From assembly GCF_003591515.1 (NCBI RefSeq), contig NZ_QZCG01000001.1, positions 186,001 through 250,000 of the forward strand: 64,000 nt of DNA, in the 5' to 3' direction. Shown here in pieces: positions 33,579 to 58,434 of this stretch. Each line of letters opens with the position of its first letter. Positions within the stretch are counted from its first letter, which is position 1. Source of the DNA: Paracoccus onubensis (GTDB lineage Bacteria > Pseudomonadota > Alphaproteobacteria > Rhodobacterales > Rhodobacteraceae). The notes beneath the pieces were generated by a model that was not told the origin of the DNA, ran no database searches, and was given only the letters and a program-made list of their open reading frames with translations. The position numbers and the translations under genes were made by a program.

Positions 33579-33582
33579 CGGC

Positions 33583-33642: not shown

Positions 33643-33645
33643 TCC

Positions 33646-35025: not shown

Positions 35026-35062
35026 GGCTATCACCTCCGTCGGGCGCGAATTTCATTGCCGA

Positions 35063-37436: not shown

Positions 37437-37460
37437 CGTCGCAACTCGTCTTCGCAGAGT

Positions 37461-38456: not shown

Positions 38457-38499
38457 CGCGCTTTCTCCCATTGGAACAGGCCAGGTCCGATAAGAAACG

Positions 38500-38616
38500 A
38501 CCCCTTCTTCTTTGTCCAAATACCTCGGGGGTCGCCGACGGGTCGCGCCACCGGTTCAAAAGACCTGCAGGCGACGGGCAGCGCCCCCGGGCCCTCGCCA
38601 GAGGCGGATGCCTTTC
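38500..38616 (-). repeat. Recurrent intergenic stem-loop element, copy F, with inserted module, inside the ABC operon
   Basis: Minus strand: GAGGGCCCGGGGGC-GCT-GCCC, an inserted module bounded by GTCGCC and GGCGAC, CCCCGAGGTATTTGGAC, then AAAGAAGAAG. It is just 3' of the ATPase gene in its orientation and upstream of the permease gene of the same operon. Confidence 0.82.
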
Positions 38617-38644
38617 CGTCACGGCCGAACGAACCCCGCATCCC

Positions 38645-40138: not shown

Positions 40139-40214
40139 CGTGCCTTGCCTTTGCTGTTGGATGATCGCCGCGGAAGCGGCGCGCAAGCTGCGGGAAGCCT
40201 GCGCGCGCTGGGGC

Positions 40215-41171: not shown

Positions 41172-41234
41172 TTCTCTCTCCCTTTTGAAATATGCCCGAA
41201 GCAAGCCGGGCTGTTTACGCCCCGGGCCGCTTGC

Positions 41235-42203: not shown

Positions 42204-42413
42204 GGCGTCTCCTCCTCATCCTGAGGGGATTGAAACGCACATTGGTATAATAGTCAATACAGATGTTATTGTAAATTGCACAGCTTTGCGAAGAATTTGT
42301 AACGTATCTTCGCTAAATCAGTCCAAATACCGCAACAAAAGTTTTTTATTGATAACTTAAGATCAAATGCTAGATCTGACGTGGCGAACAAAAGTTTCAA
42401 CGGAGAGATGATT
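42204..42413. promoter_or_regulatory. AT-rich divergent control region of the polyol locus with paired AACAAAAGTTT sites
   Basis: This 210-base region between the divergent kinase and dehydrogenase genes is markedly AT-rich. AACAAAAGTTT occurs at 42334-42344 and again at 42387-42397 (53 bases apart), each preceded by GC or GCG. The two sites, close to the dehydrogenase start, are candidate operators for the SorC regulator of this cluster. GGTATAATAG around 42245 resembles a -10 element. Confidence 0.5.
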
Positions 42414-45220: not shown

Positions 45221-45838
45221 TTAGCCCAATCGTGGAGCGGAGGGCTTCGGAGACAGCAGCGTCGGGTCATTCGGGTTGAAGCTGTCGGGCATTTGCCAAT
45301 TCGGGGTTCCGCCGGCGAACAGCTTGAAGAACGCGACGGCGGTTGCGCCGCTTTTGCTGGTGTTCTCCCGGAATGACCACCAGGTCCGCAGATCGTGAAG
45401 CTCTTCCCCCGCCGATGCGATTTCGCCGTATTCCTGCTGAATCGCTGCGGCGCGGACATTCATGCAATAGATGGTGTAGCAATATCCCTCGGGCCAGAAA
45501 TGCGCCGGGTTGGCGGGATCCGGCTCGGTCGGCGGAGAAACGATCCGGCAGGGCTGCGCGTTGATCAGCTCGCGCAGCATGAGGCCGGCGGCATGGTCGA
45601 AAAAGCCGCGCCGGATTTTTTCGGAACGTGGGTTGATTTGTTCGACCTTGCGCAGCCACGAGACGAAGCATCGGGCCAGAGCCGCGTCATCGATTTCGAT
45701 CGTCGCGCCGATTTCATGGCCGATGCGATCGACAACGGCGGCGAATGAAGCGCGGAACCACCGCATGCGCCGGACGGCGACGCGGATCGGATCCGGGCTG
45801 TCGGGAAGCCTGACGGTCAGGAACGGCGTTTCAGACAT
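45221..45838 (-). CDS. Uncharacterised protein, second gene of an unrecognised pair
   Basis: A 205-residue protein I do not recognise. It is soluble (no signal peptide or membrane helix), with an N-terminal FLTVRLPDSPDPIRVAVRRM, a central EGYCYTIYCMNVRAAAIQQEYGE and a Trp/Arg-rich LRTWWSFRENTSKSGATAVAFFKLFAGG. Codon usage is like the neighbours and the frame is overlapped by eight bases with the gene upstream (45831-46514), so it is very likely real and co-translated. It is transcribed away from the DRL operon. Confidence 0.65.
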   Translation of the reverse strand: MSETPFLTVRLPDSPDPIRVAVRRMRWFRASFAAVVDRIGHEIGATIEIDDAALARCFVSWLRKVEQINPRSEKIRRGFFDHAAGLMLRELINAQPCRIVSPPTEPDPANPAHFWPEGYCYTIYCMNVRAAAIQQEYGEIASAGEELHDLRTWWSFRENTSKSGATAVAFFKLFAGGTPNWQMPDSFNPNDPTLLSPKPSAPRLG

Positions 45839-46514
45839 GGTAACGGAATTCTTTCAGCAATGCGGCAATCGCCTGACGATCACCCCGGGCCTTCAGTATA
45901 TCGTCCTGAAGCGCAAGGGACAGGGCCGTCGCCGCATCAAGTGCCTCTTGCGCGTCATCGGCGGCCTTGTCGGCCAGCATCCACAGCATCAGGCCGAAAC
46001 AGGCAAGCTGCGTGGCGTCCTCTTCGGATAGCGGTACGCCGGGATTCATCCGCAGCTCGGCAATGGCGCCATGATTCTGCATCGCGACGATCAGGGCGGT
46101 GGCGCGCTGGATATCGTTCGTTCCGCGAATCGATTCGAAGGCCATCGCTGATTTGACCTCGGAAATAAGCCAGCTATGCGCTCCCAGATTGCGCAGGGCA
46201 TGGCCAAGGGCCGCATAGGCGGCATGGGCAAAGGCCGAGGCGTTCAATGCGCCGGCCTGAAGCGCGGTCGCGGGAAGGCGGACCCTGCCGCTGTCTCCCA
46301 GCATCAGATGCGCGACTTCCTCTGCGCCATGGGCAATGCGATCGACCTGGGCAATCGCGGCGCCCGCGATCTGATCCACGGGCTTGCCGGCCCTGCTGGT
46401 GTTCTGCTGGACGATATCGCGCCCCTCGCGGGCGACATGTCTGACGATACGCAATGCGTCGCGAAGTAGTAATGCGCCGGGAAGTCCTGGGTCGGAGTGT
46501 CGTGGCAATGTCAT
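45831..46514 (-). CDS. Uncharacterised Ala-rich helical protein, first gene of an unrecognised pair
   Basis: A 227-residue protein with no recognised domain, predominantly helical and rich in Ala and Leu (LPATALQAGALNASAFAHAAYAALGHALRNLG, QALIVAMQNHGAIAELR-like segments, then LACFGLMLWMLADKAADDAQEALDAATALSLALQDDILK). No signal peptide. It is divergent from the DRL operon across a 222-base AT-rich gap and overlaps the next gene by eight bases. Conserved gene-neighbourhood analysis would tell whether it belongs to the methylerythritol/polyol locus. Confidence 0.62.
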   Translation of the reverse strand: MTLPRHSDPGLPGALLLRDALRIVRHVAREGRDIVQQNTSRAGKPVDQIAGAAIAQVDRIAHGAEEVAHLMLGDSGRVRLPATALQAGALNASAFAHAAYAALGHALRNLGAHSWLISEVKSAMAFESIRGTNDIQRATALIVAMQNHGAIAELRMNPGVPLSEEDATQLACFGLMLWMLADKAADDAQEALDAATALSLALQDDILKARGDRQAIAALLKEFRYHV

Positions 46515-46736: not shown

Positions 46737-48062
46737 ATGCCAACCAACGTCGCCTTGACCGGCCTTGCCCGTGACCTGCGTGAGCGCGGGGATAGTGGAA
46801 AACCCATTCGCGTCGGCCTTGTCGGTTCGGGTGAGATGGGCACCGATATCGTCGCGCGGGTCGCGCATATGCCGGGAATCGAGATCGGGGCGATCTCGGA
46901 ACTGAACATTCCCGCGGCCGACCGTGCGGTCGATATCGCATATCAGGAGACCGGTCATGCGCGGCAGGTAAGTGATCTCGATCAACTCAACTCAGCCATG
47001 GAAGCCGGAAAGGTCGCGACGACGGACAAGGTCGACTTGCTGCTGGAATCGGGGCTGATCGATGTCGTGGTGGATGCGACGGGCGTTCCTGCAGTCGGCG
47101 CGGAAATCGGCCTTCGCGCGATGGAGCATGGCAAGCATCTGGTGATGATGAATGTCGAGGCGGATGTGACCATCGGCGCATATCTGCGGGCCGAGGCCGA
47201 ACGTCTGGGTGTGGTCTATACGCTGGGCGCGGGCGACGAGCCCTCATCCTGCATGGAACTGATCGAATTCGTGTCCGCCATGGGGCACCGGATCGTGTCG
47301 GCGGGCAAGGGCAAGAACAATCCGCTGAATATCGATGCCGTCCCGGCGGAATACGAAGCCGAGGCCAAGCGCCGCAACATGAATCCCCGGATGCTGGTGG
47401 AATTCGTGGATGGCTCGAAAACCATGGTCGAGATGGCCGCCATCGCCAATGCCACCGGGTTGATCCCCGACAAGCCGGGAATGCATGGTCCGGCCTGCTC
47501 GCGCGATGAACTGTCCAAGGTGCTGGTTCCCGAAAGCGATGGCGGGTTGCTGTCTTCGGGTGAAGGCCGCGTGGATTACACCATCGGCAAGGGGGTCGCC
47601 CCCGGTGTGTTCGTGGTCGCCGAAATGGGCCATCCGCGTATCCGCGAACGCATGGAAGATCTGAAGATGGGTGAGGGTCCGTATTTCACCTTTTTCCGCC
47701 CCTATCACCTGACCTCGCTGGAGGTGCCGCTTAGCTGTGCCCGTGCGGTGCTTTACGGCAAGGCCGATATGGTCCCCATGCCGCGCCCGGTGGCCGAGGT
47801 CTGTGCGGTGGCCAAGAAGGATATGCAGCCCGGAGAGAGACTCGATCAGATCGGCGAATATTGCTATCGCGCATGGATCATGACCTCGGAACAGGCCCGC
47901 GATGGGCAGGCTATCCCCTGCGGTCTGCTGGCCGGGGCAGTCGTGACGGCGCCGATCCGCAAGGGCGAGCTGATCACCTATGCCAACGCATCCGTTCCTG
48001 CCGACAGCCGCATCGCGGCGCTGCGCGCCCGTCAGGACGACATGCTGCTTGCCACAGCCTGA
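46737..48062 (+). CDS. SAF-domain NAD(P)-dependent oxidoreductase, DXR-like (DRL, type II DXP reductoisomerase) family
   Basis: A 441-residue protein. The N-terminal Rossmann domain begins RVGLVGSGEMGTDIVARV (about residues 25-42) and resembles homoserine dehydrogenase; the central catalytic domain contains AGDEPSSCMELIEFVSAMGHRIV and SAGKGKNNPLN; a SAF domain occupies about residues 357-420 (AKKDMQPGERLDQIGEY, RKGELITYANAS). This layout is that of DRL, which replaces DXR in Brucella by interconverting DXP and 2-C-methylerythritol 4-phosphate. In this operon, with acetoin-dehydrogenase-like subunits and a glucitol-type PTS, the oxidative direction is more likely. The start follows AGGAGGA. 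Family membership is from my recognition of the architecture; other SAF oxidoreductases act on other branched sugars. Confidence 0.78.
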   Translation: MPTNVALTGLARDLRERGDSGKPIRVGLVGSGEMGTDIVARVAHMPGIEIGAISELNIPAADRAVDIAYQETGHARQVSDLDQLNSAMEAGKVATTDKVDLLLESGLIDVVVDATGVPAVGAEIGLRAMEHGKHLVMMNVEADVTIGAYLRAEAERLGVVYTLGAGDEPSSCMELIEFVSAMGHRIVSAGKGKNNPLNIDAVPAEYEAEAKRRNMNPRMLVEFVDGSKTMVEMAAIANATGLIPDKPGMHGPACSRDELSKVLVPESDGGLLSSGEGRVDYTIGKGVAPGVFVVAEMGHPRIRERMEDLKMGEGPYFTFFRPYHLTSLEVPLSCARAVLYGKADMVPMPRPVAEVCAVAKKDMQPGERLDQIGEYCYRAWIMTSEQARDGQAIPCGLLAGAVVTAPIRKGELITYANASVPADSRIAALRARQDDMLLATA

Positions 48063-48074
48063 GGATCCAGCCCG

Positions 48075-49076
48075 ATGAGTGATGACAACCGTCCCTTCGC
48101 CATCCGCAAATATGACGCGGCACGGCTGCGCGACGCCTTGCGCAAGATGTATCTGATCCGGTTCTTCGAGGAAGGCGCCGAAGACAGCTATATGCGCGGC
48201 CTGATCCACGGCACCATGCATCTGTCCATCGGGCAGGAGGCATCTGCGGTTGCCTCGTGCATCGGGCTGACCGATGAGGACAAGATCACCTCGACCCATC
48301 GGGGCCACGGGCATTGCATTTCCAAGGGGGCCGAAGTCGGACGCATGTTCGCGGAATTCTTTGGCAAGGAAGAAGGCTATTGCCATGGACGTGGCGGCTC
48401 GATGCATATTGCCGATGTGACCAAGGGCAATCTTGGCGCGAATGGCATCGTCGGTGGCGGGCTGCCTATTGCCGTGGGCGCGGGGCTGACGGCCAAACGG
48501 CTGAACACGGGCGCGGTCGCGATCTGCTTTTTCGGCGATGGCGCGAATAACGAAGGCGCGTTTCACGAAGCACTGAACATGGCGGCGATCTGGAAACTGC
48601 CGGTCGTGTTCATCTGTGAGAACAACAAATACGGCATGTCCACCTCGACCGAGCGTTCGACTGCCGTGAAGAATATCGCCGAACGCGCGGTGGCCTATGC
48701 GATGCCGGGGCATACCGTGGATGGCAATGATTTCTCGGCGGTGGCGGAAACCGTGGAAACGGCGATTGCCCGTGCCCGCGCCGGAGAGGGGCCAAGCCTG
48801 ATCGAGAACCTGACCTATCGCTGGCGCGGTCATTCGAAATCGGACCGCAACCGGTATCGGACCAAGCAGGAAATCGACGAATGGATCGCCAGGGATCCGA
48901 TCCAGCGTTTCCGGAAAGAGCTGATCGAACACGCTATCCTTGACGAAAGCGAGGCGGAAAAGGTCGCAACCGAAGCGCGGCAGGAGGTCGAGGCCGGGAT
49001 CGAGTTTGCCAAATCGGGTACCGCGCCGCGTGTCTCGGACCTTGCCAGATATGTCTATGCAGAGGAAAACGCATGA
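48075..49076 (+). CDS. TPP-dependent dehydrogenase E1 alpha subunit, acetoin dehydrogenase (AcoA)-like
   Basis: A 333-residue E1 alpha subunit. Thiamine-diphosphate motif [31 protein letters not shown] at about residues 154-184; catalytic loop His in [14 protein letters not shown]; the phosphorylation-loop region is [16 protein letters not shown]. Closest by eye to AcoA-type acetoin dehydrogenase rather than pyruvate dehydrogenase. It would cleave an acetoin-like alpha-hydroxymethylketone and pass the acetyl group to the lipoyl E2. It starts 12 bases after the DRL gene and overlaps the E1 beta gene (ATGA). Confidence 0.92.
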
Positions 49077-50092
49077 ACGCCCCCACCAGGCAACCCGACG
49101 CGGATATCCGGGAACTCAGCTATTCCGAGGCGATCCGCGAAGCGATGGGACTGGCCCTTGAACGCGATGAGCGCGTCGTGCTGATGGGCGAGGATATCGG
49201 CGTCTATGGTGGGGCTTTTCAGGTGACCGGCGATCTGGTTGAACGTTTCGGCGCCGACCGGGTGATGGATACGCCCATCTCCGAACTGGGCGGGGCCGGT
49301 GTGGCTGTGGGTGCGGCACTGACGGGGCTTCGTCCGATCTATGAATTCCAGTTCTCGGATTTCGCCGCATTGGCCATGGAACAGATCGTCAATCAGGCCG
49401 CCAAAATGCGCTATATGCTGGGCGGCGAGGCTTCGGTGCCGGTGGTCTTCCGGATGCCTGCCGGTTCCGGAACCGGGGCGGCGGCGCAGCATAGCCAAAG
49501 CTTCGAGGCATGGTTCGGTCATGTGCCGGGGCTGAAGGTCGTCCAGCCCTCGACCCCCGAGGATGCCAAGGGGTTGTTGCTGGCGGCGCTTGAGGATCCG
49601 GACCCGGTCGTCATGTTCGAGCATAAGCTGCTTTACAAGATGAAGGGTCATGTTCCCGAGGGCTGGTATACAACGCCGATTGGTAAATCCGCCATACGGC
49701 GTCACGGCAAGGATGTGACGATCGTCGCCTCGGCGATCATGGTTCACCGGGCACTGGCCGCCGCCGAGAAACTGGCCGGGGAAGGGATTGAGGTTGAAAT
49801 CATCGATCTGCGCTCGGTCCGGCCCATCGATGGCGACGCCATTATCGGCAGCGTCAAGAAAACCGGCAGGCTTCTTTGCGTCTATGAAGGGGTTCGCACG
49901 CTTGGGATCGGCGCCGAGATCTCGGCGATGATCGCGGAAAGCGAAGCGTTCGATTTTCTGGATGCGCCGGTTCTGCGGCTTGGCGGGGCGGAAGCGCCGA
50001 TCCCCTATAACCCGGATCTGGAAAAGGCCGCCGTTCCCCAGATTCCCGATATCGAGTCTGCCGCGCGCCGTCTTGCCCGCCGGGAGGTCTGA
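49073..50092 (+). CDS. TPP-dependent dehydrogenase E1 beta subunit, acetoin dehydrogenase (AcoB)-like
   Basis: A 339-residue E1 beta subunit with transketolase pyrimidine and C-terminal domains: [86 protein letters not shown] and [17 protein letters not shown]. It pairs with E1 alpha to form the alpha2beta2 E1 component. Overlaps E1 alpha by four bases; the E2 gene begins two bases after its stop. Confidence 0.93.
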
Positions 50093-50093
50093 T

Positions 50094-51473
50094 ATGCCGA
50101 CCGAAGTCATCCTGCCCAAGGTGGATATGGATATGGACGCCGGGTTGCTGGCGCAATGGCATGTCGCGACCGGCGAACATGTCGAGAAAGGGGCGGCGCT
50201 TTTCGATATCGAGACCGACAAGGCCGCGATGGAGGTTGAAGCCCCTGCCTCGGGGATCGTCGGCCATATCGTGGCAGAGGCGGGCAGCCGGATTCCCGTT
50301 GGTCAGGTCGTGGCGTGGATCTATGCGGAAAACGAAGAGATTCCCGATCTGCCTCCGGGTGGGACGATTTCCGGGGATACCGGTGCCGCCGAACAAGAAG
50401 CCGGACGGAACGAGGTTGCGGAAGTTCCGCAGCCAACGGCTCCTGCCGCCCGGGGTTCCGATGAAGCGGGCGCGGAAAATGATTCCGGCAGCCCGCGTCC
50501 TCGCGCGACCCCTGCGGCGCGGGCTGCCGCCCGGAAAAGCGGCGTGGATCTCGGCCGGGTGGCGGGATCGGGTCCCAAAGGGCGCATACAGGCCGATGAC
50601 GTGATGCGCCAGCAGCCGGTCTCCTCAGGACCTGCCGCCGTCGCTGGCCTTTCCGAAGCCGCGCCGCCGGTCGACTGGGCGGAAAATCAGCGTCCGCTTG
50701 CCATGACCCGCAGGAAGGGCCGCGCGAAAGGTCATCCCATCCTGCTGATCCACGGTTTCGCAGCCGATGCCTCCGGATGGGCACCGCTTGAAAAGGCTCT
50801 GGGGGATGCGCGCGAGATCATCCGGATCGAATTGCCCTGCCACGGGCGCTCGCCGCTGGTCAGGATAGGATCGTTCCGCGAATTCACCCGTATGATGGTC
50901 CGGGCATTCGACGATCTGGATGTCGCGCAACTGCATCTGGTCGGCCATTCTCTGGGTGGCGCGGTTGCCGCCGCTATCGCCGATATTCGTCCGCGCCGGA
51001 TCGCCAGCCTGTCGCTGATCTCGCCTGCCGGGCTGGGGCCTGAGATAGACGGCGCCACGCTGTATGGAATCGCCCGCGCGACGCGGACCGACAGTCTTGC
51101 CCCGTGGTTGAAACGGCTCGCTGCGCGCCCGGACGCAATCAGTCATGATTTCGCGAAAGCCGCGATGATGGCGAGGATGGAGCCGGAATTGCGTGCCGCA
51201 CAAGTGGAGCTGGCCGATATGCTGTTCCCGGATGGCACGCAATCCTTCGATCTGTCCGCCGCGATGGCCCGTGTGGATACGCCTTTCAAGATTGTCTGGG
51301 GCAGGCAGGACCGGATTCTGCCGTGGCGGCACGCCTTGCGCGCGCCTGACGTCGCGGGGCTGCATTTGCTGGACAAGGCGGGGCATATTCCGCATATAGA
51401 ACGCCCAGAAGCCGTTGCTCTTCCGTTGCTTGAGAATTTTCGGACGGGAGAGATTCCGGTACAGCAGAGATAA
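50094..51473 (+). CDS. E2 component with lipoyl domain, E3-binding domain and alpha/beta-hydrolase catalytic domain (AcoC-like)
   Basis: A 459-residue three-part protein. Residues 1-80: biotinyl/lipoyl domain with the lipoyl Lys43 in DIETDKAAMEVEAP. Residues 136-170: peripheral subunit-binding domain (ATPAARAAARKSGVDLGRV, GSGPKGRI). From about residue 213: alpha/beta hydrolase with oxyanion segment LLIHGFAADASGW, nucleophile Ser286 in VGHSLGGA, Asp in WGRQDRILP and His in KAGHIPHIERP. This fusion, instead of the usual chloramphenicol-acetyltransferase-like E2 core, is the hallmark of AcoC of acetoin dehydrogenase. The start ATG follows GGGAGGT. No E3 (dihydrolipoyl dehydrogenase) gene is linked, so E3 must come from elsewhere in the genome. 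Confidence 0.92.
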   Translation: MPTEVILPKVDMDMDAGLLAQWHVATGEHVEKGAALFDIETDKAAMEVEAPASGIVGHIVAEAGSRIPVGQVVAWIYAENEEIPDLPPGGTISGDTGAAEQEAGRNEVAEVPQPTAPAARGSDEAGAENDSGSPRPRATPAARAAARKSGVDLGRVAGSGPKGRIQADDVMRQQPVSSGPAAVAGLSEAAPPVDWAENQRPLAMTRRKGRAKGHPILLIHGFAADASGWAPLEKALGDAREIIRIELPCHGRSPLVRIGSFREFTRMMVRAFDDLDVAQLHLVGHSLGGAVAAAIADIRPRRIASLSLISPAGLGPEIDGATLYGIARATRTDSLAPWLKRLAARPDAISHDFAKAAMMARMEPELRAAQVELADMLFPDGTQSFDLSAAMARVDTPFKIVWGRQDRILPWRHALRAPDVAGLHLLDKAGHIPHIERPEAVALPLLENFRTGEIPVQQR

Positions 51474-51475
51474 GA

Positions 51476-52462
51476 ATGGCACAGAACAGAACCGCTCGCG
51501 CAGCTCAGACGGCAGGAAGGACATCCGAACTTGACAGGCTGCGCTCGCGGGCGGTCTGGCTGTATTATGCCGAGGGAATGAAACAATCCGAGATCGCGGA
51601 TGTTCTTGGCATGACGCGTGTCAGTATCGTCAGGCTGCTTGCCGATGCCCGGCGCCGCAACGAAGTGCGCGTCACGATCTCGTCGCCGCTGGCTGAATTC
51701 GCGCAGGCCGAAATGGAACTGCGGGAGCGTTACGGGATAGGCGAGGTCATTCTTGCGCCGGTTCACGAGGAAGACGCCGATCCGACGCTGACGATTGCGG
51801 CGATTGCGGGGGCGTTCATTTCCTCACGTGTGGGCGACGGGATGACTGTCGGGGTCGGCTGGGGCCGGACCCTGCATTCGACCCTGCCATTCATCGAGGG
51901 CCGCACAGTCGAAAACCTGCGGGTGATCTCGCTGCTGGGCGGAATCTCGCAGGCCCGGCGGTTCAATCCCGCCGAATTCGCCTGGCAGTTCGCCGAACTG
52001 TTTCAGGGAGAAGGCTACCTGATCCCCGCGCCTGCTCTGGTTGACAGCCCCGAGACCCGCCATGCGCTGCTGGAGCGGTGTGGGCTGGCGTCGATCTTCG
52101 AGATGGCTGACAAGCTGGATCTTGCGCTGCTGTCCACCGGCGGTATCGCCCAGTTGGAGACCTCTTACCGGACCGGGCATCTGTCCGAAGCCGATCGCCA
52201 GAGCCTGATCGAGCATGGCGCGGTCGGGGATGTGCTGTATAATTTCATCGACAGCAACGGAAATACCATCGATCATCCGGTGAATAACCGCGCGATATCC
52301 GCCAAGCTGGAACGGCTTCGGAATGCGCGTGAACGGGTTCTGCTTTCCGGTGGCCGTGACAAATATCGGGTCATGAGGGCGGCGATCAAGGCGCTGAGCC
52401 CGACCGTTCTCATCACCGATGAATTCACCGCGCGATCGCTTCTTTCCGATCCGGAGGAATAG
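51476..52462 (+). CDS. SorC/DeoR-type sugar-binding transcriptional regulator (DRL/PTS locus)
   Basis: A 328-residue SorC-family regulator: helix-turn-helix SRAVWLYYAEGMKQSEIADVLGMTRVSIVRLLADARRR (about residues 23-60), sensor domain with VGVGWGRTLHSTLPFIEGR, VISLLGGISQARRFNPAEFAWQFAEL and HGAVGDVLYNFIDSNGNTIDHPVNNRAI. It is paralogous to the SorC protein of the neighbouring polyol locus. It starts two bases after the E2 gene stop, so it is in the DRL operon and probably senses a phosphorylated intermediate such as methylerythritol phosphate or DXP. TTGAACATAWGT sites upstream of the DRL, HAD and gutM transcription units are the candidate operators. Confidence 0.92.
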   Translation: MAQNRTARAAQTAGRTSELDRLRSRAVWLYYAEGMKQSEIADVLGMTRVSIVRLLADARRRNEVRVTISSPLAEFAQAEMELRERYGIGEVILAPVHEEDADPTLTIAAIAGAFISSRVGDGMTVGVGWGRTLHSTLPFIEGRTVENLRVISLLGGISQARRFNPAEFAWQFAELFQGEGYLIPAPALVDSPETRHALLERCGLASIFEMADKLDLALLSTGGIAQLETSYRTGHLSEADRQSLIEHGAVGDVLYNFIDSNGNTIDHPVNNRAISAKLERLRNARERVLLSGGRDKYRVMRAAIKALSPTVLITDEFTARSLLSDPEE

Positions 52463-52519
52463 GCGAAAGCAGCCTTTCCAGATGGTGGATCAAAGAATAT
52501 CGGCCCAGGCCACCGCTTG

Positions 52520-53179
52520 TCAGGATCGTATTCCGCGCTTCAGGAAGCTTTCGGCGGCATGCCAGTCCTGAATGATTTCCCTGGCGCCCGCCGCGCGCAG
52601 CTTGCTGTCATGCCCGCGTGGTAAATGCTCGCCGCCGATATAGCCGATTGGCGTCATGCCCGCCGCCACCGCTGCTGTGACGCCAGCAACGGAATCCTCG
52701 AATACGACGCAATCACCGGGATCGACGCCCAGCCTTTCCGCCGCAAGCAGGAACAGATCCGGAGCCGGCTTGCCATTGGCGACCATGCTTGACGAAAAGA
52801 TGCGGCCGTCGAACCGGTCAAGGATTCCTGCGGTTGCCAGCGACAGCCGGATCCTTGGCACATCCGAGGATGACGCGACGCAATAGGGCAGATCCAGCCG
52901 ATCCATGAAGGTGGTCAGGCCGGGAGTATGCCGGACCTTCTGCCCAAGCAGCGAAAGGATTTCCTCAGTCAGCTCGCCGCTGGCTTCGGCGGGAAGAAGC
53001 CCGCCTTCCTCTCCGCGCAGATTTGCCAGAATATCGGTTTGTTTCATTCCGAGCATTGCCGAAAATGCCTTGGGCGCGATTGTAAGCCCATGCCGCGCAT
53101 AGACCCGTTTATACGCAATCGCCGTCAGCGTTTCACTGTTGACCAGAACCCCGTCGCAATCAAAAATTATGGCTTTCAT
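52520..53179 (-). CDS. HAD-superfamily sugar-phosphate phosphatase/mutase (beta-phosphoglucomutase-like)
   Basis: A 219-residue HAD hydrolase of subfamily IA. Motif I FDCDGVLVNSE (nucleophile Asp8), motif II VASSSDVPR, motif III Lys in ANGKPAPDLFL, motif IV VVFEDSVAGVTAAVAAGM; the cap domain is helical, as in YniC/GPP-type phosphatases. I start at the ATG at 53179; the frame continues far upstream without family similarity. It is transcribed opposite to the flanking operons and lies between them. A housekeeping role, such as removing surplus polyol phosphate, is likely but unproven. Confidence 0.9.
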   Translation of the reverse strand: MKAIIFDCDGVLVNSETLTAIAYKRVYARHGLTIAPKAFSAMLGMKQTDILANLRGEEGGLLPAEASGELTEEILSLLGQKVRHTPGLTTFMDRLDLPYCVASSSDVPRIRLSLATAGILDRFDGRIFSSSMVANGKPAPDLFLLAAERLGVDPGDCVVFEDSVAGVTAAVAAGMTPIGYIGGEHLPRGHDSKLRAAGAREIIQDWHAAESFLKRGIRS

Positions 53180-53559
53180 CAGTTGCTTATGACCTTGTTT
53201 CAGTGGTTTTCCGCGTGGGGCGTGCAGGCGATCCGGGATGTGGTATCCGGGTTGCGTGGGGATCGGATATCGGAACTTATGATTCATTTGATTATCATAT
53301 GTTATAATTCTGCACAATGACGATCACATTGATTCGGTGTGATAACCCGGTTCCGCAGATGGCCAGATCATCAGTGCCCCGCATTGCCGCTATGTCACAG
53401 GAGTGCTTCTGGTGGCGAATGGTTGAGATTACCCCGCCATCAGGATGGATCCGGTGTTTCGAGTTGAAGACGGGAATATCTGCTTGATCCCTTAATTCGG
53501 AACTTCTTGACAATAAATATTACATATGTTCAAACCTGAGAAAATGGGAGGGGGTATCA
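53180..53559. promoter_or_regulatory. AT-rich divergent control region between the HAD and gutM genes
   Basis: 380 non-coding bases. CATATGTTATAA at 53296-53307 and CATATGTTCAA at 53523-53533 share the core AACATATG (complement) with TTGAACATAAGT in the DRL promoter. TTGACA at 53507-53512 is a -35 candidate for gutM, but I see no convincing -10 at 16-18 bases. GGGAGGGGG precedes the gutM ATG. No gene is visible in the region. Confidence 0.5.
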
Positions 53560-53988
53560 ATGGAACTCTGGAAGATAGCTTTGCTTTTGCTGGCCGCCGT
53601 CTGGGGGCTTCAATCTGTCGGCATGTGGTTTCAGATGCGGCACTACAGGTCGGTGATGGGAGCGATCACCGACAAGTGGTCCGATGGCCATCTGGGCGCC
53701 GGAAACGCGCGCGGTCGCCTTGGCAAGGGCGTCATCGCGATCGTCTGCGTCGACGGAAACGCCGTCATTCGCAAGCTGATGGTAATGGAGGGGCGAAGTG
53801 TCTTCGCGAAATTCCGGCCAATGACGGAATATGAAGGCCGGCGGCTGTCCGAGGTCAAGGCCGAGTTCGCGGAGCTTGCGTCACAGGACGGGCGTGCCCG
53901 TGCCATATCGCAGGCGATCGATCAGCTCGAACGGGTGAAGGAAGCGCCCGTTCAGGATTCTGCGCAGGACATGGCGCAAGCGGCCTGA
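53560..53988 (+). CDS. gutM: Glucitol operon activator-like protein GutM
   Basis: A 142-residue protein with one N-terminal hydrophobic helix (WKIALLLLAAVWGLQSVGMWFQ) and the GutM core QMRHYRSVMGAI, LGKGVIAIVCVDGNAVIRKLMVMEGRSVFAKF. GutM activates the glucitol (sorbitol) PTS operon in E. coli together with GutR/SrlR. Here it precedes the glucitol-type PTS genes by 40 bases and heads their operon. The N-terminal helix raises the possibility that it is membrane-linked and senses transport rather than binding DNA alone. A frame starting 34 bases earlier in another phase is a shadow. Confidence 0.85.
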   Translation: MELWKIALLLLAAVWGLQSVGMWFQMRHYRSVMGAITDKWSDGHLGAGNARGRLGKGVIAIVCVDGNAVIRKLMVMEGRSVFAKFRPMTEYEGRRLSEVKAEFAELASQDGRARAISQAIDQLERVKEAPVQDSAQDMAQAA

Positions 53989-54028
53989 GATATCGACAGA
54001 TACGAATATCAGATGGAGGAGGGGAAAG

Positions 54029-54820
54029 TTGGCTTACTCCGAATTGACGATACATGTGACCGATCTGGCGCCGCAATATCTTGACTGGGCGGCCGGTCAC
54101 GCAGAGGGCTTGCTGCATGCGGTCAGGATGACTGCCGAAAACGGCGGCCCCGGCATGGATGGTGGCGCCGGCGGTCAGGAACTGATCCGGCTTGCCCAGG
54201 CAACGACGGACACGGCAAATGACGCGGCCAGCTATGCCGAGCAGGTGCAGAACGTGGCCCAGGAAGAGCAGCTTTCATGGCTGACCACCATCGGGCGGCA
54301 TTTCATCGGTGTTTTCCAGAAGGGCGGAGAGACCTTCGCGGGATTCGTCACGGGCATCATTCCGACGCTGATCGTCCTCATGACCGCCTTTTACGCGCTG
54401 ACCGAACTGGTTGGCGAACAGCGGGTGCATGGGTTCGCGCGGTTTGCGGGCCGCATTGCGTTGACCCGCTACACGGTGCTGCCGGTGCTGGCGATGTTCT
54501 TCCTGACCAATCCGATGGCTTATACGTTCGGCACCTTTCTGGAAGAAAAACACAAACCCGCCTTCTACGACTCGGCGGTCTCTTTCTGTCATCCGATCCT
54601 AGGCCTGTTTCCGCATGCCAACCCGGGCGAATATTTCGTCTGGGGCGGCATTCTTGTCGCCCTGCAAGAGCTGGAGCGGAACGGCACGTTGCCACCCAAT
54701 TACCATATCCGGCTTGCCATCTTCTATTTCGGGGTCGGCGTGGTGGTGATCCTGCTGCGCGGCATGCTGACCGAACGCATTACGCGTTTCATGGCGGCCC
54801 GCCAGAAAATCGAACTCTGA
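54029..54820 (+). CDS. srlA: Glucitol/sorbitol-type PTS permease subunit EIIC (SrlA-like) with N-terminal extension
   Basis: A 263-residue membrane protein. From about residue 86 it follows SrlA: WLTTIGRHFIGVFQKGGETFAGFVTGIIPTLIVLM, LPVLAMFFLTNPMAYTFGTFLEEKHKPAFYDSA, SFCHPILGLFPHANPGEYFVW. The first 85 residues (Gln/Ala/Asp-rich, GGPGMDGGAGGQELIRLA) have no counterpart in E. coli SrlA (about 187 residues). The start is a TTG five bases after GGAGGAGGGG. It transports and, with EIIB and EIIA, phosphorylates a polyol. In the operon gutM-srlA-srlE-srlB-HPr/EI. Confidence 0.9.
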   Translation: MAYSELTIHVTDLAPQYLDWAAGHAEGLLHAVRMTAENGGPGMDGGAGGQELIRLAQATTDTANDAASYAEQVQNVAQEEQLSWLTTIGRHFIGVFQKGGETFAGFVTGIIPTLIVLMTAFYALTELVGEQRVHGFARFAGRIALTRYTVLPVLAMFFLTNPMAYTFGTFLEEKHKPAFYDSAVSFCHPILGLFPHANPGEYFVWGGILVALQELERNGTLPPNYHIRLAIFYFGVGVVVILLRGMLTERITRFMAARQKIEL

Positions 54821-54841
54821 TCGGGGCCGGGAGGAAAAGCG

Positions 54842-55855
54842 ATGAGCGATAAATACAAGGCCGTCCGCATCGAACGCGGCTCCAATGGCTGGGGAGGGCC
54901 GCTGATCATCAAGCCGACCGCGCAGCGCGACAAGATCGTCGCGGTGACCGGAGGGGGCATTCCGCCGCTGGCCAGAAAGATCGCCGAGATGACCGGAGGA
55001 ACCGCGGTCGACGGGTTCCGTTCGCCTCCGGTCGAAGGAGAGATCGCCGCGGTGGTCATCGATTGCGGCGGAACGGCGCGTTGCGGGGTATATCCGCGCA
55101 AGCGCATCCCCACGATCAACCTGACCCCGGTCGGACAATCAGGCCCGCTGGCGCAGTTCATTACCGAAGATATCTATGTCTCGGATGTGAAGCCCGACTG
55201 CCTGTCCTTCGCGGATGGCGAGGAAGCGGCAGCGTCCGGGGCGGCGGCTGCATCCGTGCCGCAGAATGCCCCGGCCGCCGAGGCAGCCGCGACGGTGGCT
55301 GACGATGACGACTACGATCAGGGCGGCTTTATCGGAGCGATCACCTCTGTCGGCCGCGTCATGGGCAAGGCGGTCGGCGTGTTTTTCAATGCCGGACGGC
55401 GCAGCATCGATCAGGTGATCCGCAATGTGCTGCCCTTCATGGCCTTTGTGACCATGCTGATCGGTTTCATCCTTTATACAGGGGTCGGCGATCTGCTGGC
55501 TGCGCCGATGGGGCCGCTGGCCAATAATATCCTCGGCCTTCTGGTAATCTCCAGCATATGCTCACTGCCGTTCCTGTCGCCTATCCTGGGACCGGGGGCC
55601 GTGATCGCGCAGGTGATCGGCATGGCGATCATCGGCCCCCAGATCGCGAATGGAACCATCTCGCCCGCAATGGCCCTGCCTGCGCTGTTCGCCTATGATT
55701 CGCAGGTCGGGTGCGATTTCGTGCCGGTGGGGCTTGCGCTGGGAGAGGCCAAGCCGAAGACGATCGAAATCGGTGTGCCGGCGGTGCTGATGAGCCGGCA
55801 GATTATGGGACCCGTCGCCGTGCTTATTGCCTGGGTGGCCAGTTTCGCGCTTTGA
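54842..55855 (+). CDS. srlE: Glucitol/sorbitol-type PTS EIIB (EIIBC) subunit, SrlE-like
   Basis: A 337-residue protein. The N-terminal EIIB domain has the phospho-Cys motif VVIDCGGTARCGVYPRKRIPT (Cys75, possibly Cys81) and KIVAVTGGGIPPLA, an acidic linker around residues 150-160 (DDDDYDQGG), then a membrane domain (NVLPFMAFVTMLIGFILYTG, PLANNILGLLVISSICSLPFLSP). It receives phosphate from EIIA (SrlB) and hands it to the substrate bound to the membrane part. Starts 21 bases after srlA. Confidence 0.92.
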   Translation: MSDKYKAVRIERGSNGWGGPLIIKPTAQRDKIVAVTGGGIPPLARKIAEMTGGTAVDGFRSPPVEGEIAAVVIDCGGTARCGVYPRKRIPTINLTPVGQSGPLAQFITEDIYVSDVKPDCLSFADGEEAAASGAAAASVPQNAPAAEAAATVADDDDYDQGGFIGAITSVGRVMGKAVGVFFNAGRRSIDQVIRNVLPFMAFVTMLIGFILYTGVGDLLAAPMGPLANNILGLLVISSICSLPFLSPILGPGAVIAQVIGMAIIGPQIANGTISPAMALPALFAYDSQVGCDFVPVGLALGEAKPKTIEIGVPAVLMSRQIMGPVAVLIAWVASFAL

Positions 55856-55861
55856 GCCTTG

Positions 55862-55884
55862 CCGGGCGGATCGGTTCCGCCCGG
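55862..55884 (+). terminator. Intercistronic hairpin between srlE and srlB
   Basis: CCGGGCGGA-TCGGT-TCCGCCCGG is a perfect 9-bp stem with a 5-base loop six bases after the srlE stop. There is no U-tract, so it is more likely an mRNA processing or stability element than a full terminator. Confidence 0.65.
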
Positions 55885-55960
55885 AAATCATTGCCCGCAT
55901 CAGTCTTTCCGTTCAGGGAAGGCGGCAGGGAATGCACTCTATCGCATGGAGAAAAATGAT

Positions 55961-56341
55961 ATGAAGACCTATCTGCGCACGGAAATCACCGCGGTCGGCA
56001 AGGATGCCGCCGATCTGGTCGAAGGGGGCGTTCTGATCCTTTTCGCCGAAGGAGCGCCAGAGGAGTTGGCCGAGGTATCGGTTCTGCATCGCGTGGCCGA
56101 AGGGCCGCTGGACGAGGCCCCGGGACCCGGCGCGGAAATTCTGGTGGGCGGGGTGTCGGCCATCCTGACCGGGCTGGGCGATCTGGCCTGGAACAAGATC
56201 CGGGATATCGGCCATGTCGTCATCAATTTCAACGACAGCGATACGCCCGACAGGCCGGGCGAGATCTGCGCGAGTGTCGTGAATTCCGAGGCTTTGGTGC
56301 AGGCTATCCATTCGGGCAAGGAGATCGTGATCCGTTCGTGA
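55961..56341 (+). CDS. srlB: Glucitol/sorbitol-type PTS EIIA subunit, SrlB-like
   Basis: A 126-residue EIIA-Gut protein (PTSIIA_gutA): TEITAVGKDAADLVEGGVLILFAEGAPEELAEVSVLHRV with the candidate phospho-His in SVLHR, then GGVSAILTGLGDLAWNKIRDIGHVVINFN. It accepts phosphate from HPr and donates it to EIIB. I use the ATG at 55961 (MKTYLRTE) behind GGAG; an ATG 15 bases upstream adds MEKND. The HPr-EI gene follows after element copy H. Confidence 0.9.
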   Translation: MKTYLRTEITAVGKDAADLVEGGVLILFAEGAPEELAEVSVLHRVAEGPLDEAPGPGAEILVGGVSAILTGLGDLAWNKIRDIGHVVINFNDSDTPDRPGEICASVVNSEALVQAIHSGKEIVIRS

Positions 56342-56379
56342 TGCCGTGCGGTTCTGACCGTGGACAGATATTGAAACAG

Positions 56380-56450
56380 GTTGCGTCCGAGGGGCACCTC
56401 CCGGGGGCCAGCCCCCGGATCCCGAGGTATTTGGACAAAGAAGAAGCAGA
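56380..56450 (+). repeat. Recurrent intergenic stem-loop element, copy H, inside the PTS operon
   Basis: TTGCGTCC, CCGGGGGC-CA-GCCCCCGG, ATCCCGAGGTATTTGGAC, AAAGAAGAAG. It is about 40 bases after srlB in its orientation and about 50 bases before the HPr-EI start. The frame of the HPr-EI gene is open through it but the translation there is not part of the protein. Confidence 0.82.
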
Positions 56451-56499
56451 GGGCGCGGCGTTTTTGATCCGGCCCGGCTTGATGTGGGAGAAGAAGCCG

Positions 56500-58434
56500 A
56501 TGATGGAACGGACCTTCGCGGTCAGGGTGCGGGATGGGCTGCATGCGCGCCCCGCGACCCAATTCGTGAAACTGGCGAAGAGTTTCGCGTCCGAGATCAC
56601 GATCACCTGTAACGGGCAGGCGGCAAGCGCCAAGAGTGCGGTGAAGCTTATGCTGCTTGGGATCAAGGAAGATGACGAGGCGACATTGCGGGTCGAGGGC
56701 GAGGATGCGCCGGATGCGCTTTCGGCGCTATCGACTTTCTTGCAGAACCCGGCTGCCGGGGACATCGCCCTGCCAAAAACCGGCGGCGCTGCACCTGCGT
56801 CCTCCGCGAAGGCGGGGCCGGAGGATGACGGTTCCGACGGGATCGCCGCGAGCGAGGGAACCGGCTACGGCCCGTCCTTCGCATTTTTTCCGCCTGTCCT
56901 GAAAATCGAACCGCAGGCTGTTTCCGATACCGAAGCCGAGATTTCGCGCTATCGGGATGCGGTGTCCGGCGTCACGACCGCCTTTGCCCGGAACAAGCAG
57001 CGTGCCGGGACCGAAAGCGATACGAATGCCATTATCGATGCATTGATCGATGTCGCGCAGGATGCGGAATTCGCGGAGGAGATCGAAGCCGCAATCCGTG
57101 GCGGTCAGGATGCCGCCAGTGCGGTCATGTCAGTGGGAACGCGCCTGACCGAGAGTTTCGAGGCGATGGACGACCCCTATATCCGTGCCCGCGGCGAGGA
57201 TATGCGCAGCGTGACCCGCCAGATCGTTCTGGCGCTGGTCGGGCAGGCGGATGTCTCGCTTGCCGATGTGGCGCCGGGATCGGTGATTGTCGCCGATGAG
57301 ATCACCGCCTGGGATCTGGCCCGCGCCAATCTTCCGGATATCGCCGGGATCGTTTGCCGCAAGGGCGCGGCGACCTCGCATGTCGCGATCATGGCGCGTG
57401 CCCATGGCATCCCCGCGGTTCTGGGGGCCTCGATTTCGGCGGATCGGCTGGCGGGTGCCGGAACTGTCGGGCTGGACGGGGCGGCGGGGAAGGTTTTCAT
57501 CGATCCGGACCCGGCGACCCGTGCGCGGCTGAATGATGCGATCGCCCGGGAAGCCGCCGAGAAGAAGGCGCTCGAGGCATATCGGACGGTCGAGCCGGTG
57601 ACTTCTGCGGGTATCCGGGTCGAGGTTGCGGCAAATCTGGGAAGCCTCGCCGAAATCCCGGCGGCGCTGGAGGCCGGAGCAATGGGGGTCGGCCTGTTCA
57701 GGACCGAATTTCTGTTCATGGAGCGCAAGACCCTGCCGACCGAGGATGAGCAGGCCGAGGTCTATACACGCCTTGCCGAAGCCTTCGCCCCTTATCCGGT
57801 GGTGATCCGGACCCTGGATATCGGAGGCGACAAGCCGATTACGGGCGTCGATTTCGAACATGAGGACAACCCGTTTCTGGGATGGCGCGGGATCCGCATG
57901 TGTCTGGAGCGGCCGGATATCTTCAAGCCTCAGCTTCGCGCCCTGCTGCGGGCCTCGGTCGTCGGCAATGTCAAGGTGCTCATCCCCATGATTGCGGACG
58001 GCTCGGAAGTTCGGGAGGTTCGCAGGCTGTTCGAGGAATGCCGGGACGAAATGCGGCAGGAAGGAACCGCCTTCGGCAGCTTCGAGCTTGGCGTGATGAT
58101 CGAAACCCCGGCGGCGGTTTTTCTTGCCGCGGAACTGGCGCAGCAGGTCGATTTCTTCTCGATCGGCACCAATGATCTGACGCAATATGTGATGGCGGCG
58201 GATCGTCTGAATCCGAAAGTCGCCAGCCTCAACCGTGCCGAACATCCCGCAGTGCTGCGCGCGATTTCCGCCACCTGCGAGGCCGCGAAGGCTGCCAATA
58301 TCTGGATCGGCGTCTGTGGTGAAGCTGCGGCGCGTCAGGACCTGACAGGGTTTTTCATCGAGAACGGGGTAACGGAACTGTCGATGAGTTCCACATCGAT
58401 TCCACGCACAAAGCAGGCGATTACGCGTCTTTGA
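56500..58434 (+). CDS. HPr-EI fusion protein (PTS phosphocarrier HPr plus enzyme I)
   Basis: A 644-residue general PTS energy-coupling protein. Residues 1-88 form HPr with phospho-His15 in RVRDGLHARPATQF; starting at the first of two ATGs places this His at the canonical number. After a short linker comes enzyme I (from about 115): phospho-His294 in GAATSHVAIMARAHGIPAV, the PEP-binding domain with GLFRTEFLFMERKTLPTEDEQ, TLDIGGDKPI, IGTNDLTQYVMAADRLN, and the catalytic Cys606 in IGVCGEAA. No EIIA-Fru domain is attached, unlike FruB-type multi-domain proteins. The cluster therefore has its own complete phosphorelay from PEP to the glucitol-type permease. SD GGGAG nine bases upstream. Confidence 0.94.
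   Translation: MMERTFAVRVRDGLHARPATQFVKLAKSFASEITITCNGQAASAKSAVKLMLLGIKEDDEATLRVEGEDAPDALSALSTFLQNPAAGDIALPKTGGAAPASSAKAGPEDDGSDGIAASEGTGYGPSFAFFPPVLKIEPQAVSDTEAEISRYRDAVSGVTTAFARNKQRAGTESDTNAIIDALIDVAQDAEFAEEIEAAIRGGQDAASAVMSVGTRLTESFEAMDDPYIRARGEDMRSVTRQIVLALVGQADVSLADVAPGSVIVADEITAWDLARANLPDIAGIVCRKGAATSHVAIMARAHGIPAVLGASISADRLAGAGTVGLDGAAGKVFIDPDPATRARLNDAIAREAAEKKALEAYRTVEPVTSAGIRVEVAANLGSLAEIPAALEAGAMGVGLFRTEFLFMERKTLPTEDEQAEVYTRLAEAFAPYPVVIRTLDIGGDKPITGVDFEHEDNPFLGWRGIRMCLERPDIFKPQLRALLRASVVGNVKVLIPMIADGSEVREVRRLFEECRDEMRQEGTAFGSFELGVMIETPAAVFLAAELAQQVDFFSIGTNDLTQYVMAADRLNPKVASLNRAEHPAVLRAISATCEAAKAANIWIGVCGEAAARQDLTGFFIENGVTELSMSSTSIPRTKQAITRL

What the first reader, a model, noticed from the sequence alone, without database searches (positions are those of the whole stretch)
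46737..58434. Candidate catabolic pathway for 2-C-methyl-D-erythritol (or a related branched polyol): DRL + acetoin-dehydrogenase-like complex + glucitol-type PTS
Seen in sequence: a DRL-type SAF oxidoreductase, AcoA/AcoB-like E1 subunits, an AcoC-like lipoyl/hydrolase E2, a SorC regulator, a HAD phosphatase, GutM, PTS EIIC/EIIB/EIIA of the glucitol family and an HPr-EI fusion in one 11.7-kb block. Established: DRL interconverts DXP and methylerythritol 4-phosphate (Brucella), DXP reductoisomerase chemistry is reversible, and acetoin dehydrogenase cleaves CH3-CO-CHOH-R by TPP/lipoate to acetyl-CoA plus an aldehyde. DXP is exactly such an alpha-hydroxymethylketone. Inference: PTS uptake makes methylerythritol 4-phosphate, DRL oxidises it to DXP, and the Aco-like complex yields acetyl-CoA and glyceraldehyde 3-phosphate. 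The second half is DXS chemistry in reverse, with the acetyl group captured oxidatively. This would be a route degrading the plant/bacterial isoprenoid-pathway polyol rather than making isoprenoids.
Basis: partly seen in the sequence, partly recalled or inferred. Interest (0 to 1): 0.95.

Follow-up and report, generated by a model that had tools for sequence, protein, structure and literature searches.

The report
MEP pathway run backwards for food
A Paracoccus gene cluster joins a relative of the enzyme that makes the isoprenoid precursor methylerythritol phosphate to a sugar-import system and an acetoin-dehydrogenase-like complex, and it likely runs the first two isoprenoid-making steps in reverse to eat 2-C-methylerythritol, a degradation route our paper searches did not find described.

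Summary
The genome also has a canonical dxr, so DRL is not needed for isoprenoids here. In relatives (113 distinct DRL genes), 69 DRLs sit directly before E1alpha-E1beta (67 consecutive; two cut by contig ends) and 44 do not (3 undecidable). DRLs away from the complex occur in 38 of 48 genomes without dxr but 1 of 26 with it, and look like biosynthetic replacements. In three dxr-less genomes the linked and unlinked copies are about 99% identical (one linked copy has a stop codon), so linked DRL very probably handles the same DXP/MEP pair. Linked loci carry a glucitol-type PTS, a PfkB kinase or a phosphonate-type ABC importer (45 of 53); unlinked loci carry none of these (0 of 36). E1 forms its own subfamily beside acetoin dehydrogenase, with a basic active-site loop (HSKSDRNRYR against HFEGD), as expected for a phosphorylated substrate. 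Best reading: methylerythritol enters as its 4-phosphate, DRL converts it to DXP, and the complex splits DXP to acetyl-CoA and glyceraldehyde 3-phosphate. No step is assayed; the substrate is inferred. It would explain the published puzzle of active DXR-II in bacteria without a MEP pathway.

The parts
46737..48062 (+). DRL / DXR-II-type oxidoreductase (predicted MEP to DXP, reverse of biosynthesis)
   Evidence: PF21135 222 bits; solved Brucella DRL 660 bits; residues matching E174, F178, K191, K193, T229, H250, R320, Y322 kept
48075..49076 (+). E1 alpha subunit, TPP-dependent, acetoin-dehydrogenase-like but of its own subfamily
   Evidence: PF00676 298.5 bits; subfamily tree and HSKSDRNRYR loop
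49073..50092 (+). E1 beta subunit; overlaps E1 alpha by 4 bases
   Evidence: Transket_pyr and Transketolase_C; NF006667 400.8 over cut-off 321
50091..51473 (+). E2: lipoyl domain (ETDKA motif), E3-binding domain, alpha/beta-hydrolase domain (AcoC type)
   Evidence: Pfam; NF011457 355.8 over cut-off 307
51476..52462 (+). SorC/DeoR-type regulator with a sugar-binding domain, last gene of the DRL operon
   Evidence: PF04198 178.2 bits
52520..53317 (-). HAD phosphatase (beta-phosphoglucomutase/sugar-phosphatase group); role unknown
   Evidence: PF00702; recurs beside GutM in related PTS-type loci
53560..53988 (+). GutM-like protein
   Evidence: PF06923 82.9 bits
54029..54820 (+). PTS EIIC, glucitol family (SrlA)
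   Evidence: PF03608 219.7 bits; NF049923 189.7 over cut-off 150
54842..55855 (+). PTS EIIB(C), glucitol family (SrlE)
   Evidence: PF03612 and PF07663; NF049924 449.2 over cut-off 400
55952..56341 (+). PTS EIIA, glucitol family (SrlB)
   Evidence: PF03829 82.5 bits
56338..58434 (+). HPr-Enzyme I fusion: with EIIA, EIIB and EIIC the cluster encodes all PTS parts
   Evidence: PF00381, PF05524, PF00391, PF02896
36450..45102 (.). neighbouring block: SorC-type regulator, ribose-type ABC permease, ATPase and binding protein, PfkB kinase (minus strand); zinc ADH and GlpD-like dehydrogenase (plus strand); possibly a second entry route
   Evidence: Pfam; parts recur beside DRL in L033, L034, L040-L042, L044, L072, L080, L083, L093

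Best explanation
[quoted passage not shown] Shown by sequence and comparison: gene identities, operon order, a separate dxr, the conserved DRL-E1-E2 unit, the interchangeable uptake modules, the DXR-II active-site residues, and a distinct E1 subfamily. Inferred: DRL direction and substrate; the E1/E2 substrate (DXP has the CH3-CO-CHOH-R unit of acetoin); E3 supplied from elsewhere in the genome, as it is missing here; induction through the SorC protein. Cleaving DXP to a thioester would pull the unfavourable MEP-to-DXP step forward.
For: (1) Canonical dxr present. (2) DRL-E1alpha-E1beta consecutive in 67 of 69 linked loci; 0 of 17 loci of distant relatives (31-37% identical) have E1 nearby. 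(3) Unlinked DRLs in 38 of 48 dxr-less and 1 of 26 dxr-bearing genomes, Fisher p 1.1e-10 before correction for kinship; ispG found in 76 of 77 of these genomes, so they use the MEP pathway. In a separate class-wide draw (besides the window, 3 of 385 genomes with a DRL over 50% identical), the two whose flanks can be judged have no E1 beside DRL (L199, L201) and no dxr; the third cannot be judged and also has no dxr. (4) Linked and unlinked copies in one dxr-less genome differ at 4 of 433, 4 of 436 and 5 of 436 positions: whatever the unlinked copy does for isoprenoids, an intact linked one can very probably do too. (5) Ten dxr-less genomes have only a linked DRL at the threshold used. (6) The eight DXR-II residues checked are kept in 76 or 77 of 77 linked rows. 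(7) Uptake: PTS alone 17, PfkB kinase alone 18, phosphonate-type ABC alone 8, two modules in 2, none of them in 8 of 53 linked loci; 0 of 36 unlinked: the constant would be a phosphorylated substrate. (8) E1alpha subfamily: K255 in 77 of 78 linked rows (R in the other) and 1 of 34 others (E in 18, R in 8); R258 77 of 78 against 3 of 34; R260 76 of 78 against 0 of 34; H45 78 of 78 against 1 of 34. (9) Cofactor genes join some clusters: lpdA (L033, L034, L036), lipA (L034), thiamine operon (L035). (10) PDH makes 1-deoxyxylulose from pyruvate and glyceraldehyde, and aceE mutants make DXP (PMC3424233, abstract and passages), so this enzyme class can handle the chemistry.
Against: No assay, growth or expression data were found for any step. 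The association with dxr loss is phylogenetically clumped: independent pairs give about 2.7 in favour and 0.1 against, not significant. The 80 loci were the hits nearest to the window's DRL, so the sample is biased to one part of the family. One of the three linked twins (L125, A. anthyllidis) has a stop codon inside and may be dead, leaving two intact pairs. Listeria, Enterococcus and Ligilactobacillus records have DRL with glucitol-PTS genes but no E1/E2 in the 19-21 kb seen, so another DXP fate, or another substrate, is possible there. A C. difficile plasmid has the same E1 subfamily with a PTS but no DRL in the stretch seen. The Priestia E1 keeps K255 but not R258 or R260 (it has A and K). 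No dihydrolipoamide dehydrogenase in the window cluster. One dxr-bearing genome has an unlinked DRL (L141, with a 30% FGGY-kinase match nearby). Eight of 53 linked loci show none of the three uptake modules.
Confidence: 0.72

Rival explanations
1. The architecture is as proposed, but the outside substrate differs: an epimer such as 2-C-methylthreitol, 1-deoxyxylulose, a glycoside, or an already phosphorylated MEP-pathway product; DRL and E1/E2 still meet at DXP or a close analogue.
For: Uptake modules vary (PTS, PfkB, phosphonate-type ABC, in some with an MBL-fold protein), which could mean different outside substrates. The ADH/GlpD/PfkB block in the window suggests a second entry point.
Against: DRL is the constant of these loci (which were found through it), and its near-identical twins appear to serve MEP biosynthesis. 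If DXP itself were the entry point, DRL would be dispensable.
Confidence: 0.16
2. DRL here is a second, biosynthetic MEP synthase (dosage or fosmidomycin tolerance), and the neighbouring E1/E2 is an ordinary acetoin or pyruvate dehydrogenase with an unrelated PTS.
For: DXR-II enzymes of this family complement dxr loss (PMC3847144, parts 1-3 of 8 read); lower fosmidomycin sensitivity as an advantage is the paper's own suggestion (passages).
Against: Linkage in 67 of 69 loci; unlinked DRL, not linked DRL, follows the absence of dxr; E1 lacks the acetoin-type signature and lies outside the acetoin clade; no acetoin reductase or butanediol dehydrogenase among the neighbouring ORFs scanned, unlike L162 and L168.
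Confidence: 0.06
3. It is a sorbitol operon in which DRL has replaced sorbitol-6-phosphate dehydrogenase, as one database name suggests.
For: Glucitol-family PTS and GutM; a UniRef name for a relative begins 'Sorbitol-6-phosphate 2-dehy' (P0008).
Against: DXR-II residues kept; 35 of 53 well-flanked linked loci have no glucitol PTS; fructose 6-phosphate would need no lipoate complex.
Confidence: 0.03

Closest known systems
DXR-II / DRL (Brucella, PDB 3UPL/3UPY; PMC3847144)
   Same: Full-length homology, Pfam family and the residues checked.
   Different: Known as a biosynthetic MEP synthase; here in a genome that has dxr and inside a catabolic-looking operon.
Acetoin dehydrogenase complex (AcoABC)
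   Same: E1alpha, E1beta, AcoC-type E2 with an alpha/beta-hydrolase domain; acyloin-type cleavage expected.
   Different: E1 forms its own clade with HSKSDRNRYR in place of HFEGD; no acetoin or butanediol genes among the neighbours scanned; 28 of 69 linked loci have a standard catalytic E2 instead.
Glucitol PTS operon (srlAEB, gutM)
   Same: EIIC, EIIB, EIIA and GutM of the same families.
   Different: No SrlD-type dehydrogenase among the genes scanned; brings its own HPr-EI fusion; DRL and E1/E2 would follow uptake.
DXP synthase and DXR, the first steps of the MEP pathway
   Same: Same intermediates DXP and MEP, TPP chemistry.
   Different: Predicted to run in reverse, with the acetyl group captured oxidatively on lipoate and CoA.

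Membership tests
DXR-II (DRL) | DRL catalytic domain PF21135 with an NAD-binding domain | tested here: met
   222.4 bits and 36.5 bits
DXR-II (DRL) | Substrate and dimer residues K191, K193, T229 and E174, F178, R320, Y322 (Brucella numbering; named in PMC3847144) | tested here: met
DXR-II (DRL) | Makes MEP from DXP (complementation of dxr loss) | not testable with these tools
   only indirect: near-identical twins and sole-DRL genomes without dxr
Acetoin dehydrogenase | AcoC-type E2 (NCBIfam NF011457) | tested here: met
   355.8 bits, cut-off 307
Acetoin dehydrogenase | E1 alpha groups with E1 of acetoin/butanediol clusters | tested here: not met
   separate clade, SH-aLRT 95, in a quick 63-row tree with the linked rows thinned to 29; active-site loop differs
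Acetoin dehydrogenase | Acetoin reductase or butanediol dehydrogenase gene alongside | tested here: not met
   none among the ORFs scanned between 45221 and 60945; the zinc ADH at 42381 is nearest to threonine and inosose dehydrogenase models, below their cut-offs
Pyruvate dehydrogenase | E1 alpha over NCBIfam cut-off TIGR03182 | tested here: not met
   376.5 bits, cut-off 393.85; the Priestia E1 alpha of this subfamily does pass it, 396.7, so the cut-off alone does not separate them; a separate E1 alpha, 40% identical, exists at G000:C5
Glucitol PTS | SrlA and SrlE over the NCBIfam equivalog cut-offs | tested here: met
   189.7 over 150 and 449.2 over 400; the older subfamily models TIGR00821 and TIGR00825, and the SrlB and GutM models, are not reached
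Glucitol PTS | Transports and phosphorylates glucitol | not testable with these tools
   -
Biosynthetic replacement of dxr by DRL | No canonical dxr in the genome | tested here: not met
   dxr at G000:C37:79636-80019

The most novel reading that the evidence does not exclude
The DXR-II family is at root a catabolic enzyme of methylerythritol degradation, a pathway that runs the opening of isoprenoid biosynthesis backwards; bacteria repeatedly copied the catabolic gene and, having a second MEP synthase to hand, lost dxr. The alternative isoprenoid enzyme of Brucella and its kin would then be a domesticated food-use gene, which explains active DXR-II in species that have DXR-I or no MEP pathway at all.
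Probability: 0.55. Interest if true: 0.93.

Novelty: new variant of a known kind. Interest (0 to 1): 0.84.

Why it matters
The authors of PMC3847144 ask how DXR-II could arise beside DXR-I, and report it active from Finegoldia magna, in whose genome they found no other MEP-pathway gene, and from Chloroflexus, which they assign to mevalonate (passages). A catabolic origin would answer this and can be tested directly. It would also be a microbial sink for 2-C-methylerythritol; 2-methyltetrols are abundant isoprene oxidation products in air (recalled; PMC11868990 on 2-methyltetrols in Amazonian air was seen only in a search listing). DXP would gain a further fate besides isoprenoids, thiamine and pyridoxal, and a lipoate complex would act on a sugar phosphate. 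Calling an isoprenoid pathway from DXR-II alone would be unsafe.

Tried and rejected
Paper searches for a described methylerythritol catabolic route listed none; the library lacks most subscription papers, several of these searches returned only the top of long lists, and I saw only the listings. A paper on DRL that the review cites (PMC2922546) is not held, so I rely on what PMC3847144 says of earlier work.

Considered and rejected: DRL as the only MEP synthase (dxr is present); the E1/E2 as acetoin dehydrogenase or PDH; chance neighbourhood; the glucitol PTS as a fixed part of the system. I first counted 42 unlinked and 52 linked loci with good flanks; removes seven loci fetched twice and takes a 7.9 kb flank in place of 8 kb (36 unlinked, 53 linked). 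Module thresholds: any SrlA or SrlE match, PfkB at 50% identity or more, phosphonate-type ABC at 45% or more; two unlinked loci (L141, L149) have a weak FGGY-kinase match, which is not one of the three modules. Three unlinked calls cannot be decided for lack of sequence (L111, L114, L135); their genomes are dropped from the 74-genome table. With them in, the table is 41 of 51 against 1 of 26. L087's genome was not held and is in no genome count. The second-DRL search used E up to 1e-90, so a remote DRL could have been missed in the ten genomes with only a linked one. Contexts in Finegoldia, Anaerococcus, Chloroflexus and the C. difficile chromosome could not be reached here.
Full report
What is there. 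The window lies in a 4.76-Mb genome (G000, contig 11), close to Paracoccus onubensis (DRL 98% identical). The left unit DRL-E1alpha-E1beta-E2-SorC is tightly packed on one strand (gaps of 12 bases or less, two overlaps), and DRL has a good ribosome-binding site (AGGAGG). After a HAD gene on the other strand comes the second unit, GutM-SrlA-SrlE-SrlB-(HPr-EI), which encodes every PTS part from enzyme I to EIIC. DRL aligns end to end with the solved Brucella enzyme (660 bits) and keeps the residues checked. E2 carries a lipoyl domain, an E3-binding domain and an alpha/beta-hydrolase domain in the AcoC manner. No E3 gene was seen in this cluster.

Is DRL needed for isoprenoids here? No: a canonical dxr lies on contig 37.

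Comparative test. In 77 of the 78 genomes behind the 80 loci (one was not held) I looked for dxr, for every DRL copy at E up to 1e-90, and for ispG (present in 76 of 77). Second copies were fetched with flanks and scored for neighbours by tblastn. After removing duplicates there are 113 DRL genes: 69 linked to E1alpha and 44 not, of which 3 have too little sequence to tell. Among linked genes DRL-E1alpha-E1beta is consecutive in 67 of 69; the other two run off their contigs.

Linked and unlinked DRLs behave differently. Of 26 genomes with dxr, all have a linked DRL and one has an unlinked DRL. Of 48 genomes without dxr (three undecidable ones left out), 38 have an unlinked DRL (Fisher p 1.1e-10). 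The natural reading is that unlinked copies supply MEP where dxr is lost, and linked copies do something else. The genomes are related, and a kinship-corrected count goes the same way (about 2.7 pairs for, 0.1 against) but cannot reach significance. Ten dxr-less genomes have only a linked copy, which would then have to serve both ends. A separate draw of 385 genomes across the class held, besides the window, three DRLs over 50% identical. In the two that can be judged there is no E1 beside DRL (L199 in 17 kb; L201 in 2.7 kb downstream) and the genome has no dxr, as predicted; the third (L200, genome 64% complete) cannot be judged and has no dxr either.

Why the linked copy should act on DXP and MEP. 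In Aminobacter anthyllidis, A. ciceronei and Candidatus Phyllobacterium onerii, all without dxr, the linked and unlinked copies differ at 4 of 433, 4 of 436 and 5 of 436 residues. The linked A. anthyllidis copy has a stop codon inside and may be dead; the other two pairs are intact. Eight ORFs around the unlinked A. anthyllidis copy include no sugar-uptake gene. In the DRL tree (122 rows, quick search, SH-aLRT only) the two labels change at least 13 times (9 forced by well-supported branches; 36.6 expected for shuffled labels), with unlinked copies nested inside linked groups. So the same protein appears able to do both jobs, and in these nested cases the direction is linked to unlinked. The root of the family is not settled by this tree.

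Why a phosphorylated substrate. Of 53 linked loci with at least 7.9 kb on both sides, 17 have only the glucitol PTS, 18 only a PfkB-type kinase, 8 only an ABC importer distantly related to 2-aminoethylphosphonate transporters (below those families' cut-offs), 2 have two modules, and 8 none of these; 0 of 36 unlinked loci have any. In S. meliloti Rm41 a gene annotated 'sugar kinase' stands with sugar ABC genes next to the regulator and DRL (L034). A Bacillota plasmid (Priestia) has PTS, E1alpha-E1beta-E2-lpdA, an MFS transporter, DRL and an FGGY kinase. The shared outcome of these modules would be a phosphorylated polyol inside the cell.

Why the complex should split DXP. The E1alpha of linked loci forms its own clade with the Priestia protein and one C. 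difficile plasmid protein, beside the E1 of acetoin and butanediol clusters (63 rows, linked rows thinned to 29). Its active-site loop reads HSKSDRNRYR where acetoin-type proteins read HFEGD: K255 in 77 of 78 (R in the other) against 1 of 34 (E in 18, R in 8), R258 in 77 of 78 against 3 of 34, R260 in 76 of 78 against 0 of 34; also H45 in 78 of 78 against 1 of 34, and S51 in 76 of 78 where 33 of 34 others have Y (the 78 hold one gene fetched twice). Priestia has K255 but A258 and K260. From the alignment to human PDH this is the loop that carries the regulatory serine of PDH near the active site (recalled). A basic loop there fits a phosphate on the substrate; this is inference. DXP carries the CH3-CO-CHOH unit that acetoin dehydrogenases cleave, and PDH can form 1-deoxyxylulose, with aceE mutants forming DXP in vivo (PMC3424233, abstract and passages). 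Some clusters add lpdA, lipA or a thiamine operon, as a busy TPP/lipoate complex would need.

Mechanism proposed. Import and phosphorylation give MEP; DRL oxidises and rearranges it to DXP with NAD(P)+; E1 adds TPP to the C2 ketone, releases glyceraldehyde 3-phosphate, and passes the acetyl group to the lipoyl arm and CoA; E3 from elsewhere reoxidises the lipoate. The DXR equilibrium favours MEP (recalled), so capture of the acetyl group would drive the route. All of this is inference from the parts.

What does not fit, or is open. Bacillota DRLs on Listeria, Enterococcus and Ligilactobacillus records sit with GutM and glucitol-PTS genes but without E1/E2 in the 19-21 kb seen; Ligilactobacillus has a fructose-6-phosphate aldolase and a transketolase gene there instead, and Enterococcus a phosphoketolase on the other strand. 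They may split DXP another way, or use another substrate. The C. difficile plasmid E1 has a PTS and a class II aldolase but no DRL in the stretch seen.

Relation to known work. PMC3847144 (parts 1 to 3 of 8 and passages read) defines DXR-II as an alternative isoprenoid enzyme, notes functional paralogs in Mesorhizobium loti and Ochrobactrum anthropi, and reports activity from Finegoldia, in which no other MEP-pathway gene was found; a word search of its main text found no 'catabol', 'acetoin', 'phosphotransferase' or 'sorbitol'. A 2026 review says the scatter of type II Dxr is not easily explained by gene transfer (PMC13001223, passages). My paper searches found no described methylerythritol catabolism.

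Verdict. Observation confirmed; interpretation supported by comparison, with the biochemistry untested.

Noticed in passing
window 36450-45102: A block of SorC-type regulator, ribose-type ABC genes and PfkB kinase (minus) with zinc ADH and GlpD-like dehydrogenase (plus); its parts recur beside DRL in several other genomes and may be a second entry route into the same pathway.
   Followed up: partly
window 45221-46514: Two small minus-strand genes (205 and 227 aa) with no Pfam match over a cut-off; homologues of one or both lie beside DRL or the PTS genes in many linked loci.
   Followed up: no
L052:16496-21237, L060:15020-18846, L151:12710-17619: Several linked loci without PTS or PfkB have an ABC importer distantly related to 2-aminoethylphosphonate transporters, in some followed by an MBL-fold protein; possible uptake of an already phosphorylated compound such as MEP or its cyclodiphosphate.
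   Followed up: partly
linked loci in general: The E2 in the same operon slot comes in two architectures: AcoC-like with an alpha/beta-hydrolase domain (35 of 69) or a standard acyltransferase domain (28 of 69); 6 were not typed.
   Followed up: partly
L163 and L169 (Clostridioides difficile plasmid): SorC-type regulator, E1 of the DRL-linked subfamily, E2, lpdA, a sigma-54 activator, PTS IIABC, class II aldolase and lipoate ligase, without DRL in the stretch seen: perhaps a related sugar-phosphate pathway.
   Followed up: partly
L166:9001-16572 (Ligilactobacillus salivarius): DRL, glucitol PTS, GutM and a sugar-binding regulator followed by fructose-6-phosphate aldolase and transketolase genes: possibly a retro-aldol way to use DXP without the lipoate complex.
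   Followed up: no
L125 (Aminobacter anthyllidis): The linked DRL copy has one stop codon inside while its unlinked twin is open; either a recent loss or a sequencing error.
   Followed up: no
L096 and L037: A contig titled Bacillus subtilis SK6B4 carries a rhizobial-type DRL (75% identical to the window's), and a 2.9-Mb Listeria record is filed as a plasmid: both look mislabelled.
   Followed up: no
control genomes: The dxr Pfam model PF02670 also rings in Methanocaldococcus jannaschii, an archaeon not expected to have the MEP pathway (recalled), whereas PF04551 does not; unexplained.
   Followed up: no
window 32382-35034: Fumarylacetoacetase and homogentisate 1,2-dioxygenase genes (tyrosine breakdown), unrelated to the finding.
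   Followed up: no
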